A stretch of 39,962 nt of DNA from a virus, in the IMG/VR virus record IMGVR_UViG_3300021479_000043, positions 1-39,962 of that record, one strand, 5' to 3'. Positions 9,339 to 39,675 of the stretch are shown piece after piece; within the stretch, counting starts at the first letter, position 1, and the number at the start of each line of letters is the position of its first letter. The notes under the pieces were generated by a model. The model saw only the letters and a list, made by a program, of their open reading frames with translations. It did not search any database and was not told where the DNA came from. Both the position numbers and the translations under genes were made by a program.

Positions 9339-10130
9339 ATGATTACATTTTTACCCACAGATTACCAAGCACCTAAAATGAATAGCTCTTATATGAAGAT
9401 TCTTCCTGGGGAGAACAAAATAAGAATCCTTTCCAAGCCCGTGATGGGCTGGGAGGACTGGAAAGATAAAAAGCCAATACGATTTAGAGAACACGCAAAA
9501 CCTCTATCTCCGGTAGATCCAGAGAAACCAGTAAAGTTTTTCTGGTCTTTCATTGTGTGGAACTATAACGAAAAACAGATCCAAATATTACACTTAACAC
9601 AAGCATCTATAAGAAAAAACATAGAAGCTCTATGTAAAGACGCAGACTGGGGACAGCCATTTTTCTACGATATCAAGATCTTAAAAAAAGGTGAGCAGAT
9701 GGAAACTGAATATGTCGTTAATCCATTACCACACAAGCCAATCACCGAAGAGATGATTTCCTGTTTCCACAAGAAGCCGATAAATTTGGAGGCTTTATAT
9801 GACAACTCAGACCCTTTTTCACATCTGCAAGATAATTTTACTCCTGGCGTGTTTACTCAATCTAAGGAATTAGAGTTGCAACCTGTCGCGGTAGAAGTAC
9901 AGCAGATAGAGCTAGAAAAACTTTCAGATGAACAGGCTAAAGAGTTGGTGTCGATAATGGAAGAATGTGACGTCGATTATAGGAAACAAACGTGGAAATT
10001 CTGGAAACAGCAATACAAAATAAATGTGTTGGCAGATCTCCCCGCATCTGTGTACGAAGGAATTAAAAATGGTGCGCTGAGTCGTTTAAATGAGAATGCA
10101 AAGAAAGAATATCAAGGAGAAAAAAAATGA
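9339..10130 (+). CDS. gp32-like single-stranded DNA-binding protein
   Basis: 263 residues. The pattern ENKIRILSKPVMGWEDW, KFFWSFIVWNYNEKQIQIL, TQASIRKNIEALCKDADWG, FFYDIKILKKG fits the phage gp32-like ssDNA-binding OB-fold proteins. The C-terminal 80 residues are an additional helical acidic domain. Such genes commonly stand beside a YqaJ nuclease and act together in replication and recombination; here a homing endonuclease separates the two. The start has GGAGG eight bases upstream. Confidence 0.65.
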   Translation: MITFLPTDYQAPKMNSSYMKILPGENKIRILSKPVMGWEDWKDKKPIRFREHAKPLSPVDPEKPVKFFWSFIVWNYNEKQIQILHLTQASIRKNIEALCKDADWGQPFFYDIKILKKGEQMETEYVVNPLPHKPITEEMISCFHKKPINLEALYDNSDPFSHLQDNFTPGVFTQSKELELQPVAVEVQQIELEKLSDEQAKELVSIMEECDVDYRKQTWKFWKQQYKINVLADLPASVYEGIKNGALSRLNENAKKEYQGEKK

Positions 10131-10729
10131 GCGAGATTATTTCTCGTTTCATGAATAAAGTTGAGAAAACAGAAACCTGTTGGATTTGGAAAGCTCAGAT
10201 CCAACCAACAGGTTATGGTACCTTTTGGATGAATAAAAAGAATCAACTTTCTCACAGAGTTTCCTGGGTTTTATTTAAAGGTGATATACCCAACGGACTA
10301 TGGGTATTGCATAGATGTGACAATCCTTCTTGTGTAAATCCAGATCATCTTTTTTTAGGAACTCCTAAAGATAATACTCATGACATGATGAATAAGGGTA
10401 GAGAGAGAAAACAAATAAGTAAACTTACAGAACGAGATCTGGCTAATGTTTTAGATCTCTATAAAAATGGAGTTTCACAAAGGGAAATTTCTAGAATATT
10501 CAATACAACTCAATTTTTGATCTGGAGACACATTCACAAAAAAGTTCCAGTAAAAAAATGTATTGGAGAAGGTAATAAAAAATCTGTACTAACTGAAATG
10601 CAAGTAAAAGAGATAAGATCTTCTTATATACCAATAAAAGTTAGTTTTAATATTCTGTCGAAAAAATATAATGTTAACAAAAGTACAATTGAAAGAATAA
10701 TTAGGAGAGAAACATGGCAGCATATTTAA
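10127..10729 (+). CDS. HNH homing endonuclease (HNH_3 type)
   Basis: 200 residues. CWIWKAQIQPTGYGTFW, HRVSWVLFKGDIP, then LHRCDNPSCVNPDHLFLG: the nuclease core with H62, N71 and H74 and the cysteines C64/C69 is intact. KDNTHDMMNKGRERKQ and two C-terminal helix-turn-helix-like segments (KNGVSQREISRIFNTT; NILSKKYNVNKSTIERI) supply DNA binding. It overlaps the ssDNA-binding gene by ATGA and the nuclease gene by 16 bases, an exact fit between two functionally linked genes, typical of a free-standing homing gene. Confidence 0.9.
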   Translation: MSEIISRFMNKVEKTETCWIWKAQIQPTGYGTFWMNKKNQLSHRVSWVLFKGDIPNGLWVLHRCDNPSCVNPDHLFLGTPKDNTHDMMNKGRERKQISKLTERDLANVLDLYKNGVSQREISRIFNTTQFLIWRHIHKKVPVKKCIGEGNKKSVLTEMQVKEIRSSYIPIKVSFNILSKKYNVNKSTIERIIRRETWQHI

Positions 10730-21258: not shown

Positions 21259-22128
21259 TTATCTTTTTTTATTTTTAAATCTTAAATCCATAACTTTTTC
21301 CATTCCAAAAGATTCATATTTTATCAATCTCCTAGAAAGACACGCTATACTGCATCCCATTTCCTTTGCCCATTCAGTAATATTTTGAGTTTTTCCATTA
21401 AATGTTATTTGTTTTGAATTGTTTTTTTTATTAAAAGTACTTTTATTTAGTATACAACAATTTTTAGGTGAAAATATAGACTTACCCTCTTTCAAAAAAA
21501 TTCCCTCTCCCTTTTTATATCCATTTTTTAATGCCCATTTTACAAAATCCTTAGCACCATTTCTCCATAACTCACACACTGTATGTCCTAATAAACCATG
21601 ATTTTTATATCTAGAATCTTTTTCATTATAACACGCGGCCACAAAAGCATTCCTTGATTGATAAATAGAAGCTTCTATTTCAGATGTATTTTTTGTTCTT
21701 AACTTATGTGAAGGAGGATATTGAGTGGTATTTATCCATCGGGATTGTAGTTTTCTTGCTAAACAACCACATGATTTGGTAGGATGTTTTTTTGATGTAA
21801 GACGACCTGAATTAAGAGTCTTTTCTACTCCACAATCACATTTCACCAGATATCTTGTCTTGTTTGTGTGCCAAGGAACTTCCTTAATAACTGTTAATCT
21901 ACCAAAAACTTTACCTTGAAGAGGAGGATATCTTCTAAGATATTTACATTTTGAACATTCAAATTTCTTACCACAACACTTTAATATAGAAAGATAATCT
22001 CTTCTAAAAGTTTGTTCGTTTCCGCATTGACATATAGTTTTCCAGAAACTTTTATTTCCTTGCTTTTCTTCTTTTATAAGAGTTAATCTTCCAATAATCA
22101 TACCCTCTTTAAAGTACTTTGATGTCAT
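21259..22128 (-). CDS. HNH-like homing endonuclease, active site apparently degenerate
   Basis: 289 residues. Two copies of a zinc-ribbon-like GRLTxIKE...C.CG unit (GRLTLIKEEKQG..CQCGNEQT and GRLTVIKEVPWH..CDCGVEKT), a SCGCLARK motif, and a nuclease-like core around YKNHGLLGHTVCELWRNG. In related phage HNH-type enzymes the core continues with a DRIDNNGNYEPxNC motif; here the equivalent (IFLKEGKSIFSPKNC) has lost the acidic and asparagine residues. A DNA-binding repeat (ITFNGKTQNITEWAKEMGCS) ends it. It overlaps the ribbon-helix-helix gene upstream. Probably a remnant homing gene. Confidence 0.65.
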   Translation of the reverse strand: MTSKYFKEGMIIGRLTLIKEEKQGNKSFWKTICQCGNEQTFRRDYLSILKCCGKKFECSKCKYLRRYPPLQGKVFGRLTVIKEVPWHTNKTRYLVKCDCGVEKTLNSGRLTSKKHPTKSCGCLARKLQSRWINTTQYPPSHKLRTKNTSEIEASIYQSRNAFVAACYNEKDSRYKNHGLLGHTVCELWRNGAKDFVKWALKNGYKKGEGIFLKEGKSIFSPKNCCILNKSTFNKKNNSKQITFNGKTQNITEWAKEMGCSIACLSRRLIKYESFGMEKVMDLRFKNKKR

Positions 22129-34470: not shown

Positions 34471-35151
34471 TTATGCTGCTAATGCACTCAAACGAGTACA
34501 TAGAAGGTTTCGGATCGCTGTATCCTGAGTGATGGCCTGTGCCTGACTGAAGCGAACCGCTAAAGTACAGTTTTGAGCCAACATTCCAGAATAGTATTCG
34601 TCACGATAAATCAGTTTCATGGAATCTCCATCCTGATTTATGTGAGTGACTGCCTGTTTACCCAGAACAGTGTTGTAATATACGTCCGCCAATGTTCCAA
34701 GGTTATTTGTTGCAGCATTGCGCGCAACAGGACCCTCAGAGCTTGTCAATATACGAATATTGAACACATTACCCCACTCAGTCGGTAGAGCTGATGTATT
34801 CGACGCATATGACCACTGATTCAATACGCCAACATTACCCACTAATGCGTCAAAGTCCGACTGCAATTCTGTGCTAGATAGCATGAAATAGCAGTTACGA
34901 ACTGGACCTGTGCCGAATTTATCCATTCCAGGAATACCTGTCATGAACTTATAGGCATTGTTAGTGTCCAACGTAGTAGCCACAAGGCTAAAGTCGCTTG
35001 TCCCCAGGTTAGTAGGGTTAAAACCGTTACTTCCACCACCGGCATTTATCTCGGAAGCGGCTGAAACGATATAGTCGCGTAAAATTAAATCTTCTGCTTG
35101 ACGCATTGCCACAGCTAAACGCTCTGACACCCACGCCAAGACTCCTTCTTG
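34471..35151 (-). CDS. Major capsid protein, exon 3 (C-terminal two-thirds)
   Basis: 226 codons plus stop from CAAGAAGGAGTC. QEGVLAWVSERLAVAMRQAE, DLILRDYIVSAASEI, TLDTNNAYKFMTGIPGMDKF and TQDTAIRNLL place it in the N4-gp56-like major capsid family. The capsid has no start codon of its own here: translated from TTG at 35139 it lacks the N-terminal arm, which lies 1.4 kb upstream. The join is inferred to fall after a G at 35152 (or 35164, giving four more residues). It is followed directly by virion genes. Confidence 0.85.
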   Translation of the reverse strand, partial: QEGVLAWVSERLAVAMRQAEDLILRDYIVSAASEINAGGGSNGFNPTNLGTSDFSLVATTLDTNNAYKFMTGIPGMDKFGTGPVRNCYFMLSSTELQSDFDALVGNVGVLNQWSYASNTSALPTEWGNVFNIRILTSSEGPVARNAATNNLGTLADVYYNTVLGKQAVTHINQDGDSMKLIYRDEYYSGMLAQNCTLAVRFSQAQAITQDTAIRNLLCTRLSALAA

Positions 35152-35278
35152 CGAATTGTTACTCCTCTTACGAGGGGTGAAATCATTTCTGTTTCACTCT
35201 CATACTTTCGATATGAGACCCGACTATCGCTTTATCCGTACTAAGGATATCCAACCGCTTTAGTCTGTCAGCCCGAAC

Positions 35279-35307
35279 TTGACTTTAATCAATTCCATGT
35301 GTACACT
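35279..35307 (+). promoter_or_regulatory. Promoter for the antisense endonuclease gene
   Basis: TTGACT (35279-35284), a 17-base spacer and TACACT (35302-35307), 31 bases before the ATG at 35339 that follows AGGAGG. The gene can therefore be expressed independently of the capsid transcript. Confidence 0.6.
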
Positions 35308-35338
35308 AATTAATGAACCTGTAACCATAGGAGGTTTT

Positions 35339-35869
35339 ATGGAGTTCAATAACGTCGATCATAAACATAGATTTTATTATGAACCAAAAATTCACGATCC
35401 ACTGCATCTTGCATATCTTGCTGGAATTGTAGACGGAGAGGGTTGTTTTCATGCCTGTAAACTTAAAAACAAACCTGGAGACGGTTACAAAAACGGTCAT
35501 TATCGCGCTGTGCTTAAAGTTGCTAATACTGACAAACGTCTTTTTGATTGGCTTCAAGAAACATTTAGAGGTACTTGTTCCGCAGCTTTTAAAGAAACGC
35601 GTGATAAAACTCATCGCAGAGATTGTTATGAATGGGTTGTTACTGGACATAGACTTCTCGACATTAGTCGACAAATCTTGCCTTATTTGGTCATAAAAAA
35701 GCGACATTGCGAACTTGTGATTAAGTTTAGAGAAACTTTTCCCTTGAATTTGGGAAGAGGAAATCGGGAAATTACTCCAGAAGAATCTCTTCTTCGAGAG
35801 GATTGTATTGCCGAGATCAAAAAACTTAATGCTAGGGTTCGCGATATTCCGCATTGTAAAATCCTTTAA
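35339..35869 (+). CDS. LAGLIDADG homing endonuclease, antisense to its intron
   Basis: 176 residues from the ATG at 35339, five bases after a perfect AGGAGG; the frame is open to 35279 but that is not needed. LAYLAGIVDGEG is a good LAGLIDADG motif (residues 24-35), with Asp and Glu in place, and HRLLDISRQILPYL suits the second helix. One motif only, so a homodimer. The gene opposes the interrupted capsid gene and intron. Antisense endonuclease genes are uncommon in bacterial-phage introns. Confidence 0.9.
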   Translation: MEFNNVDHKHRFYYEPKIHDPLHLAYLAGIVDGEGCFHACKLKNKPGDGYKNGHYRAVLKVANTDKRLFDWLQETFRGTCSAAFKETRDKTHRRDCYEWVVTGHRLLDISRQILPYLVIKKRHCELVIKFRETFPLNLGRGNREITPEESLLREDCIAEIKKLNARVRDIPHCKIL

Positions 35870-36013
35870 GTTCTTGGCCCTTGTTTCCATGCCACCCATT
35901 AATTTGGGTGGTTTAGGGGTCCAAGTCGATTAGGTCGGATTTAACCAGGACCATTATACAGTAATCCTGGAGAATAACTTGATAATTTATTATGCAGCCA
36001 GTCTTGTAGACGC

Positions 36014-36106
36014 ATAATTCAAGTCACTCATTGTTTCGGCACCAGCTAAAAGACCGAAAAATGCCATTTGTGCGTCTATGATATCCCTTTGAGGCACTTG
36101 CGCTGG
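36014..36106 (-). CDS. Major capsid protein, exon 2 (small internal exon)
   Basis: 31 codons reading PAQVPQRDIIDAQMAFFGLL AGAETMSDLNY (first and second parts). PAQ...IDAQMAFFG fits the segment of N4-gp56-like capsids after the N-terminal arm. The reading frame stays open to 35990, where it stops, showing the intron border lies before that. The exon may end at 36053 (after FFG) instead if the P1 helix there is the true one; then about 13 residues are lost compared with usual spacing. The start follows TTG at 36107 and leaves the preceding DP in frame. Confidence 0.65.
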
Positions 36107-36129
36107 CAATCTGTTACTTGTTGACCAAG

Positions 36130-36146
36130 GTAAAGCGGCTTTACAT
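36130..36146. repeat. 19-bp palindrome, copy 3, in the intron
   Basis: GTAAAGCGGCTTTACAT, the inner 17 bases of the palindrome at 2526 and 4775; the outer left AT is AG here. Flanking CCAA/TTGG extends the stem. Confidence 0.75.
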
Positions 36147-36176
36147 TGGCGGGCCAAATCTTCTCAGCTGGCCTCT

Positions 36177-36443
36177 CTATGTCTCCATAGAGTTCGGAGT
36201 ACCGCATCGATTCATGTGATTTTTATCTGCAAAAATATGTTTATATTCTCCACATCCTGCACATTTCAAATACATGATATCGTCTTCTCGCTTACTGCTC
36301 TCAGGCTGCAAATTTTCACCGCAAAAAGGACAAAAACTTATCTTGAAATCCGTTAGAAATTCCGCATCTTTTTCATAAATCCATATAGAATTTCCTTCAA
36401 TTTCTACATCTACTAAATCTGTCTCTTTTTTACAGTTACACAT
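36177..36443 (-). CDS. Zinc-ribbon protein encoded in capsid intron 1
   Basis: 88 residues in the sense direction of the intron. CNC near the start, CPFCGEN (residues 38-44), KCAGCGEYKH and HMNRCG give six or more cysteines and two histidines, a double zinc site. It is not a recognisable homing endonuclease. GGGGCAAG lies upstream of its ATG. Its 3' end overlaps the hairpin CTCTATG/CATAGAG of the intron. Confidence 0.7.
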   Translation of the reverse strand: MCNCKKETDLVDVEIEGNSIWIYEKDAEFLTDFKISFCPFCGENLQPESSKREDDIMYLKCAGCGEYKHIFADKNHMNRCGTPNSMET

Positions 36444-36537
36444 TAACTTGCCCCTTGTTATCCTTTCTCAGCGATTATGCTGCGATTAGGAACTCCAAGT
36501 CAATCAGAGAAGATTTAAAGACCCCACAGTATTTTCT

Positions 36538-36750
36538 AGGGTCTATTCCACTATTACCAAGTTGTATCGTAGGGGGTTGTAGCGCCCTAGGACGCATAAA
36601 ACGAGCTGTAGTACCACCATGCGCAGGCATGGAGATCTTGTCACAGATCGTTATATAGTTCATGGCGGGGGTGGGTACGTATAACATGGCCGGAGCTAGG
36701 CTCTGGAGTATCATAGGACCCAATGCGCCTGTATTTGTAATCTGACCCAT
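36538..36750 (-). CDS. Major capsid protein, exon 1 (N-terminal arm)
   Basis: 71 codons. MGQITNTGALGPMILQSLAP, ITICDKISMPAHGGTTARFM and RPRALQPPTIQLGNSGIDP match the N-terminal region of N4-gp56-like capsids. Beyond GIDP the frame continues for 20 residues (RKYCGVFKSSLIDLEFLIAA) that do not fit a capsid and then stops: the intron border. AAGG precedes the ATG by six bases. Assembled with exons 2 and 3 it makes about 328 residues, normal for the family. Confidence 0.8.
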
Positions 36751-39549: not shown

Positions 39550-39568
39550 GATATTACCTTTTGTTAAT

Positions 39569-39673
39569 CACCAGAGGTAAGATTTGCACTTACGACCTCT
39601 CGTCCAAACGACCCAGATTCTGCATCTACATCCCTTGGAGTCATTGCGCTCTAACTAACTGAGCTACTCCGGC
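39569..39673 (-). tRNA. tRNA-like gene, anticodon region abnormal
   Basis: Acceptor GCCGGAG/CTCTGGT, D arm GCTC...GAGC, and a T arm GTAAG TGCAAAT CTTAC are clear and correctly ordered. Between D and T arms there are 54 bases rather than the usual 23 (37 in long-variable-arm tRNAs), and no 7-base anticodon loop with a paired 5-bp stem could be found. The 5' half reads like a tRNA-Ile/Met type. It is a broken, chimeric or interrupted tRNA. Confidence 0.4.
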
Positions 39674-39675
39674 AT

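What the first reader, a model, noticed from the sequence alone, without database searches (positions are those of the whole stretch)
34471..36750. Major capsid gene interrupted twice, by a group I intron and a second intervening sequence
Exon 1 ends in GIDP, exon 2 is PAQVPQRDIIDAQM..., and exon 3 begins QEGVLAWV; they make one in-frame N4-gp56-like capsid of about 328 residues. The second interruption has pairing P3, P6, P7, P8 and P9 of group I introns. The first has a proper P1 with T-G at the splice site. Two introns in one capsid gene, separated by an exon of only about 30 codons, is unusual for phages, since the capsid is the most abundantly needed late product.
Basis: partly seen in the sequence, partly recalled or inferred. 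Interest (0 to 1): 0.9.

Follow-up and report, generated by a model that had tools for sequence, protein, structure and literature searches.

The report
Capsid introns borrowing a neighbour's ribozyme
A phage coat-protein gene is cut by three inserts, not two: two group I introns and a 50-base mini-intron with no ribozyme that appears to be removed by the ribozyme of the intron next to it, and the inserts also encode what looks like a 'destroy me' tag for protein made from unspliced messages.

Summary
Intact relatives show exon1 / group I intron A (431 nt, zinc-ribbon ORF) / exon2 / 50-nt insert / exon3 (TGCIINYQVILQD) / group I intron B (812 nt, antisense LAGLIDADG gene) / exon4. Capsid group I introns are known. 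The 50-nt insert is not: it belongs to a recurrent class (51 found, 29-93 nt; seven more of 950-990 nt carry a LAGLIDADG gene) that keeps group I splice guides and lacks the catalytic core. All 51 mini-inserts have U before, G at the end and a 6-9 bp P1; 49 have P10, covarying with synonymous exon changes. Every one whose contig continues (56/56) lies 24-170 nt upstream of a complete group I intron, and its 3' segment pairs with exon sequence beside that partner's P1, following partner rather than insertion site. I infer that the partner ribozyme excises it, a natural 'spliceozyme'. Second, reading from the exon into these inserts ends in Ala-Ala-stop (58/64 complete introns, 46/56 coreless; 0 in other frames), as in ssrA degradation tags; complete introns just after a coreless insert lack it (1/56). 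Splicing and degradation are inferred from sequence; nothing was assayed.

The parts
36538..36750 (-). Capsid exon 1 (MGQITNTG...GIDP)
   Evidence: aligns to uninterrupted homologues
36107..36537 (-). Group I intron A (431 nt): P1 AGACCCT/GGGGTCT, P3 36513-36507/36289-36283, P4, P6, P7, P9; ends TAACAGATTG
   Evidence: CM R1 hit 36515-36384 E=1.3e-4; pairs checked
36475..36537 (-). In-frame readthrough tag of intron A: RKYCGVFKSSLIDLEFLIAA-stop
   Evidence: translation
36177..36443 (-). Zinc-ribbon ORF (88 aa) inside intron A, overlapping core strands
   Evidence: weak zinc-ribbon and Lar-like hits
36053..36106 (-). Capsid exon 2 (PAQVPQRDIIDAQMAFFG)
36003..36052 (-). Coreless mini-intron, 50 nt: preceded by U, ends in G; IGS P1 strand 36040-36034 pairs exon 36059-36053 (TTTCGGT/GCCGAAA); P10 strand 36048-36041 pairs exon 36002-35995
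   Evidence: one of 51 such inserts
36019..36029 (-). Docking strand GAGTGACTTGA, pairs with exon-3 TCAAGTTATTC (35982-35972), 8 nt before the 5' splice site of intron B
35990..36052 (-). In-frame readthrough tag LLAGAETMSDLNYASTRLAA-stop; the stop lies out of frame in exon 3
35964..36002 (-). Capsid micro-exon 3, 13 codons (TGCIINYQVILQD)
   Evidence: codon alignment with 80 homologues
35152..35963 (-). Group I intron B (812 nt), proposed ribozyme donor: P1 CCAGGAT/GTCCTGG, P3 35939-35933/35256-35250, P4 35925-35922/35883-35880, P6 35879-35876/35273-35270, P7 35265-35262/35225-35222, P8 35248-35245/35237-35234
   Evidence: pairs checked; 5' part shared with 38 contig stretches
35339..35869 (+). 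Antisense LAGLIDADG homing endonuclease gene in loop L6 of intron B (176 aa)
   Evidence: PHROG 5046 E=3e-23, Pfam LAGLIDADG_1 E=6e-4 just under cut-off; 79-85% identical copies in capsid introns of six other contigs and 63% in a seventh
34471..35151 (-). Capsid exon 4 (QEGVLAWV...LSALAA)

Best explanation
The gene holds two complete group I introns and one coreless group I-type intron. The coreless intron keeps the guide that aligns both exons (P1 with a U.G pair at the 5' splice site, P10 with the 3' exon) and a terminal G, but the P3-P9 ribozyme is replaced by a short docking strand. The docking strand pairs with exon sequence directly next to P1 of the complete intron downstream. That intron's core is proposed to excise the mini-intron first and then itself. 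Before splicing, a ribosome reading into an insert ends in an ssrA-like ...LAA tag, so unspliced capsid fragments are probably removed by ClpXP-type proteases. Shown by sequence: architecture, covariation, pairing with the neighbour, in-frame tags and their distribution. Inferred: splicing itself, use of the partner's core, order of events, and degradation.
For: 51/51 mini-inserts have U^ and ^G among protein-equivalent placements and P1 of 6-9 bp; 49/51 have P10 of at least 4 bp. With the guide set by P1 alone, P10 is at least 4 bp in 46/49, against 1% with 3' exons of other sites; P10 follows all four synonymous bases of the exon codon (ACT/ACA/ACC/ACG with CCAGT/CCTGT/CCGGT/CCCGT). Seven 950-990-nt inserts carry LAGLIDADG genes yet have only about 25 nt between guide and 3' end and no core-model hit, while the next intron has one. 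56/56 coreless inserts with enough contig are followed by a complete group I intron; coreless inserts occur in 50/55 loci with a complete intron at residues 95-150 and 2/83 others, both truncated (p=3e-29). The docking strand fits its own partner's flank (mean 9.3) and not other partners' (5.3) or shuffles (5.2), and lies 7-8 nt from the partner splice site in 36/56; specificity follows partner site. Tags: 58/64 and 46/56 in frame, 0 in other frames, 1/56 after coreless inserts; 22/22 exons under the tag use the codons that make GCA-TAA, against 19/116 (p=1e-14). New contigs not used before repeated the pattern. Precedent that a group I ribozyme can remove a coreless intron: engineered spliceozymes (PMC4094466, PMC4509937).
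Against: No RNA or protein data. The docking helix is weak or placed elsewhere in about a quarter of cases (partner sites 121, 145 and some 102). The 29-nt insert of L189 lacks P10 and tag; L114 has 1-bp P10. How a core with its own P1 would accept a second P1 is not modelled. Sequences are related, so counts are not independent. Host unknown, so no host protease or tmRNA tag could be compared.
Confidence: 0.78

Rival explanations
1. The coreless inserts are group I-type introns, but their catalyst is another ribozyme or a protein acting in trans, not the next intron.
For: Guides (P1/P10) do not by themselves name the catalyst; several genes hold more than one complete intron.
Against: Strict adjacency 56/56 and partner-specific docking strands beside the partner's P1.
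Confidence: 0.13
2. The 50-nt insert is a translational bypass element like T4 gene 60, hopped over by ribosomes.
For: Same length in the window, take-off codon Gly at site 89, hairpin at the take-off site.
Against: No matching landing codon in any of 51 inserts; stop codon not next to take-off; lengths 29-93 nt and 950-990 nt; P10 covariation with the 3' exon has no role in bypass.
Confidence: 0.03
3. The mini-insert P1 is an alternative 5' splice site of intron B, so the 13-codon segment is skipped.
For: FFG|QEG would be in frame (sequence).
Against: The segment is conserved at protein level with synonymous change and the mini-insert's P10 pairs with its first bases.
Confidence: 0.02
4. Dead gene or assembly artefact.
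For: Metagenome contigs; three relatives (L185, L194, L220) have a shared frameshift pair with a stop.
Against: Spliced reading frame open in 135/138 loci, covariation, many independent samples.
Confidence: 0.02
5. The Ala-Ala-stop ends are by-products of intron RNA structure or of a need to stop ribosomes early, not protein degrons.
For: In some introns the codons lie in the P5 hairpin or a P6 strand (alignment).
Against: 22 nucleotide forms in several RNA contexts including exon; only in frame; absent in N-terminal introns (0/25) and after coreless inserts (1/56); some tails read EQYALAA, close to E. coli ssrA.
Confidence: 0.15

Closest known systems
Group I intron with antisense LAGLIDADG gene in the capsid gene of mycobacteriophage LittleE (PMC3706429)
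   Same: 819-bp insertion in a major capsid gene, U at exon end and G at intron end, endonuclease gene on the opposite strand; splicing shown
   Different: One intron only; no coreless insert or Ala-Ala-stop tag reported in the passages read; unrelated capsid
Engineered group I spliceozymes (PMC4094466, PMC4509937)
   Same: A group I ribozyme excises a coreless intron (100 nt) from a pre-mRNA
   Different: Man-made, acts from a separate RNA, guides sit in the ribozyme (P1, P9.2); here guides sit in the coreless intron, which docks to a neighbouring intron in the same transcript
Split, trans-spliced group I introns of organelles (e.g. PMC3873408)
   Same: Parts needed for splicing lie in separate places
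   Different: There one core is assembled from pieces; here a complete, self-sufficient intron would also serve a second intron
T4 gene 60 50-nt bypass with the mobE cassette (own knowledge)
   Same: About 50 nt inserted after a Gly codon, linked to homing endonucleases in phages
   Different: Landing-codon match and adjacent stop absent; group I guides present
tmRNA/ssrA tag ...ALAA (own knowledge)
   Same: C-terminal Leu-Ala-Ala on incomplete proteins
   Different: Encoded in the gene's own introns, in frame with the upstream exon, not added by tmRNA

Membership tests
[quoted passage not shown]
   AGACCCT/GGGGTCT and CCAGGAT/GTCCTGG; ends ATTG and TTCG
Group I intron (introns A and B) | Conserved core P3-P8 with P7 | tested here: met
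   family covariation 95.9% pairs, score 0.547 against 0.174 shuffled; A by CM; B by direct pairing only, CM missed it because of the L6 insertion
Group I intron (introns A and B) | Match to Rfam group I models | tested here: not met
   no hit up to E=10 on this stretch or E=1 on six relatives; taken as a gap in Rfam's sensitivity, since the covarying core is present
Group I intron (introns A and B) | Splicing in vivo or in vitro | not testable with these tools
   no RNA data
Group I intron (50-nt insert) | Internal guide sequence: P1 plus P10 | tested here: met
   7 bp P1 and 8 bp P10; class-wide covariation
Group I intron (50-nt insert) | Own catalytic core P3-P8 | tested here: not met
   31 nt after the guide; no core hit in seven long members
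T4 gene 60-type bypass | Matching take-off and landing codons | tested here: not met
   GGT/CAT/GCT against AAG, TAG, ATG, TTG etc. in 51/51
ssrA-like degron | C-terminal (L)AA on translation products of unspliced RNA | tested here: met
ssrA-like degron | Degradation by ClpXP or similar | not testable with these tools
   no protein data; host unknown
LAGLIDADG homing endonuclease (35339-35869) | LAGLIDADG motif and family match | tested here: met
   LAYLAGIVDGEGCF; PHROG 5046 3e-23, Pfam 21.1 bits, just below cut-off 23.1
Phage major capsid protein | Family match of the spliced product | tested here: met
   PHROG 1357 major head protein 6.4e-11; no N4-gp56 Pfam hit

The most novel reading that the evidence does not exclude
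A natural spliceozyme system: non-autonomous, coreless group I introns, some mobile with their own LAGLIDADG gene, that dock onto a neighbouring complete intron and are spliced by its ribozyme, combined with intron-encoded degradation tags acting as quality control for a viral capsid protein.
Probability: 0.7. Interest if true: 0.97.

Novelty: categorically new. Interest (0 to 1): 0.95.

Why it matters
Group I introns are taken to be self-contained ribozymes. A natural set of introns of 29-93 nt that keep only the guide and rely on a neighbour's core would be, as far as my searches went, the first group I counterpart of the step thought to have led from self-splicing introns to the spliceosome (loss of cores, one shared catalyst), and it can be tested with small constructs. 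Coreless introns with their own homing endonuclease would be a minimal mobile intron made of guide plus nuclease. In-frame ...LAA tags would give a direct answer to how phages tolerate many introns in their most abundant protein: unspliced fragments are marked for destruction. Rfam does not detect these introns, so they are likely missed in annotation.

Tried and rejected
Rfam search of the window and six relatives: no group I hit, so an own covariance model was built. -1 frameshift through the insert: the lengths at site 89 fit in the first cases examined, but no slippery site was seen and the required frame has a stop inside the window's insert (TGA at offset 26). Bypass: landing codon absent. 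Cultured relatives: none for the capsid, tblastn of the window and of a distant homologue. Host from genome collection: six MAG contigs in mixed bins (Nitrospiraceae, Chlamydiia, Bacteroidales, Patescibacteria and others), not conclusive. Scan with one coreless-borne endonuclease returned only its own contig. Literature searches for coreless group I introns or intron-encoded ssrA-like tags in the open library found none; subscription papers and preprints were not covered. CM R1 misses introns with large loop insertions, including window intron B.

Full report
OBSERVATION. A codon alignment shows that relatives read ...IDAQMAFFG-TGCIINEQVILQD-QEGVLAWV. In the window the FFG is followed by 50 nt (36052-36003), then ACTGGCTGCATAATAAATTATCAAGTTATTCTCCAGGAT = TGCIINYQVILQD, then intron B, then QEGVLAWV. 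The record is itself an IMG/VR virus record of 39,962 bases.

COMPLETE INTRONS. Intron B carries an antisense LAGLIDADG gene; 79-85% identical copies sit in capsid genes of six other contigs, 63% in a seventh and 44% in six more. A pattern from the 5' part of intron B found 38 contig stretches, nearly all capsid genes. A splice-blind alignment of the capsid profile to 138 distinct loci gave 72 interrupted genes with up to six inserts. Inserts are bimodal: 51 of 29-93 nt and 154 of 196 nt or more, none between. In a sample drawn only through the intron-free C-terminal part, 29 of 80 contigs had no insert, 18 only long inserts, 33 at least one coreless insert. Cores of 37 of the long introns aligned and showed P3-P6 and P8 with strong covariation and an invariant P7 (95.9% of cells paired, covariation score 0.547 against 0.174 in shuffles and at most 0.14 in slid controls). 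The model built from them finds intron A at E=1.3e-4. Intron B is missed because the endonuclease gene fills L6, but P1, P3, P4, P6, P7 and P8 pair. Rfam does not see these introns.

CORELESS INSERTS. All 51 mini-inserts can be placed, without changing the protein, after a U and ending in a G, with P1 of 6-9 bp carrying U.G at the boundary. P10, directly 5' of the P1 strand, pairs with the first bases of the next exon in 49 of 51. With the guide located by P1 alone, P10 is at least 4 bp in 46/49, against 1% for exons of other sites; joint P1+P10 averages 12.6 against 4.6 in shuffled inserts. P10 tracks synonymous changes in the exon through all four bases. They occur at four sites of the capsid (after residues 89, 93, 105, 115), each with its own matched guide, and in two distant homologues of about 33% identity (L108, L112; read by eye, tags). 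Nothing of the core is left: typically 15-30 nt separate guide and terminal G. Seven inserts of 950-990 nt at site 105 have the same ends, with a sense LAGLIDADG gene of about 300 codons in the P1 loop and only about 25 nt from guide to terminal G; the core model finds nothing in them but does find the intron that follows.

PARTNER. Every coreless insert with enough contig downstream (56/56) is followed, after an exon of 24-170 nt, by a complete group I intron. Coreless inserts are found in 50/55 loci with a complete intron at residues 95-150 and in 2/83 others, both cut by the contig or locus end (p=3e-29). This includes loci chosen by mini-insert alone. The 3' segment of the coreless insert, sitting where the core would be, is complementary to exon sequence just upstream of the partner's P1 strand: own-partner score 9.3, other partners 5.3, shuffles 5.2; at least 8 in 41/56 against 3-5%; helix ends 7-8 nt from the partner splice site in 36/56. 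Inserts at one site (89) with different partners carry different docking strands, and inserts at sites 93, 105 and 115 sharing partner 123 carry similar ones. In the window GAGTGACTTGA pairs with TCAAGTTATTC 8 nt before intron B. I read this as docking of the coreless intron onto the partner ribozyme. Exceptions are partner site 145 and several of sites 102, 121 and 123.

TAGS. Translation from the exon into the insert ends in Ala-Ala-stop in 58/64 complete introns at residue 60 or later that do not follow a coreless insert, and in 46/56 coreless inserts (54/56 end in Ala); the other two frames give none. Complete introns right after a coreless insert: 1/56. Introns in the first 60 residues: 0/25. 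There are 22 nucleotide versions of the ending, in several RNA contexts. Where the tag's stop lies in the micro-exon, the exon uses TGC-ATA/GTA in 22/22 (making GCA-TAA), against 19/116 elsewhere (p=1e-14). Some tails read ...AQAEQYALAA, close to the E. coli ssrA tag AANDENYALAA (own knowledge). The simplest reading is that capsid fragments from unspliced RNA are marked for proteolysis; very short N-terminal fragments need no tag, and a coreless insert supplies the tag that its partner lacks.

VALIDATION. A later scan for the site-105 guide brought contigs not used before (L231-L237, L247, L248; L249 continues an earlier one). Of eight coreless inserts recognised there by the length rule, the seven with contig left have a complete partner, P10 of 5-7 bp and docking helices 7-10 nt from the partner (p at most 0.056 each), and seven of the eight tails end in Ala-Ala; three of these contigs (L231, L232, L234) gave identical results, and L237 holds a 325-nt insert not classified.

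COMPARISON. Capsid group I introns with antisense LAGLIDADG genes are known and spliced in LittleE (PMC3706429). Engineered spliceozymes remove 100-nt introns (PMC4094466, PMC4509937), so the chemistry is possible. I found no report of natural coreless group I introns or of intron-encoded ssrA-like tags in the open library searched. The mini-insert fails the defining feature 'own core', so I do not file it as an ordinary group I intron; it uses group I splice guides and would work like one with a borrowed core.

LIMITS. All is sequence inference; sequences are related, so p-values overstate independence; insert ends were chosen among protein-equivalent placements; the host is unknown; three relatives carry a shared frameshift pair I cannot explain.

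Noticed in passing
window 39568-39674 (-): tRNA-Trp(CCA) gene with a 22-nt insertion in the anticodon loop (ARAGORN intron mode), an unusual place for an insert in a bacterial virus.
   Followed up: partly
L185, L194, L220 capsid residues about 82-95: Three related contigs share a +1 and a -1 frameshift that leave a 14-codon stretch out of frame with a stop; unexplained.
   Followed up: partly
L154, L159, L160, L163, L185, L206, L220, site 105: Coreless inserts carrying a complete sense LAGLIDADG gene of about 300 codons: guide plus nuclease without ribozyme.
   Followed up: yes
L237, site 105: A 325-nt insert with tag NLIAA followed by a complete intron; intermediate in size, possibly coreless with a short ORF.
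   Followed up: no
window 36177-36443 (-): Zinc-ribbon ORF inside intron A overlapping core strands; a similar ORF lies in the intron of L133.
   Followed up: partly
window 10127-10729 (+) and 21259-22128 (-): HNH endonuclease genes elsewhere in the same genome (PHROG hits).
   Followed up: no
Rfam group I models against window and L097, L121, L133, L103, L107, L149: These clear group I introns are not detected by Rfam even at E=1, so this class is probably unannotated in viral metagenomes.
   Followed up: partly
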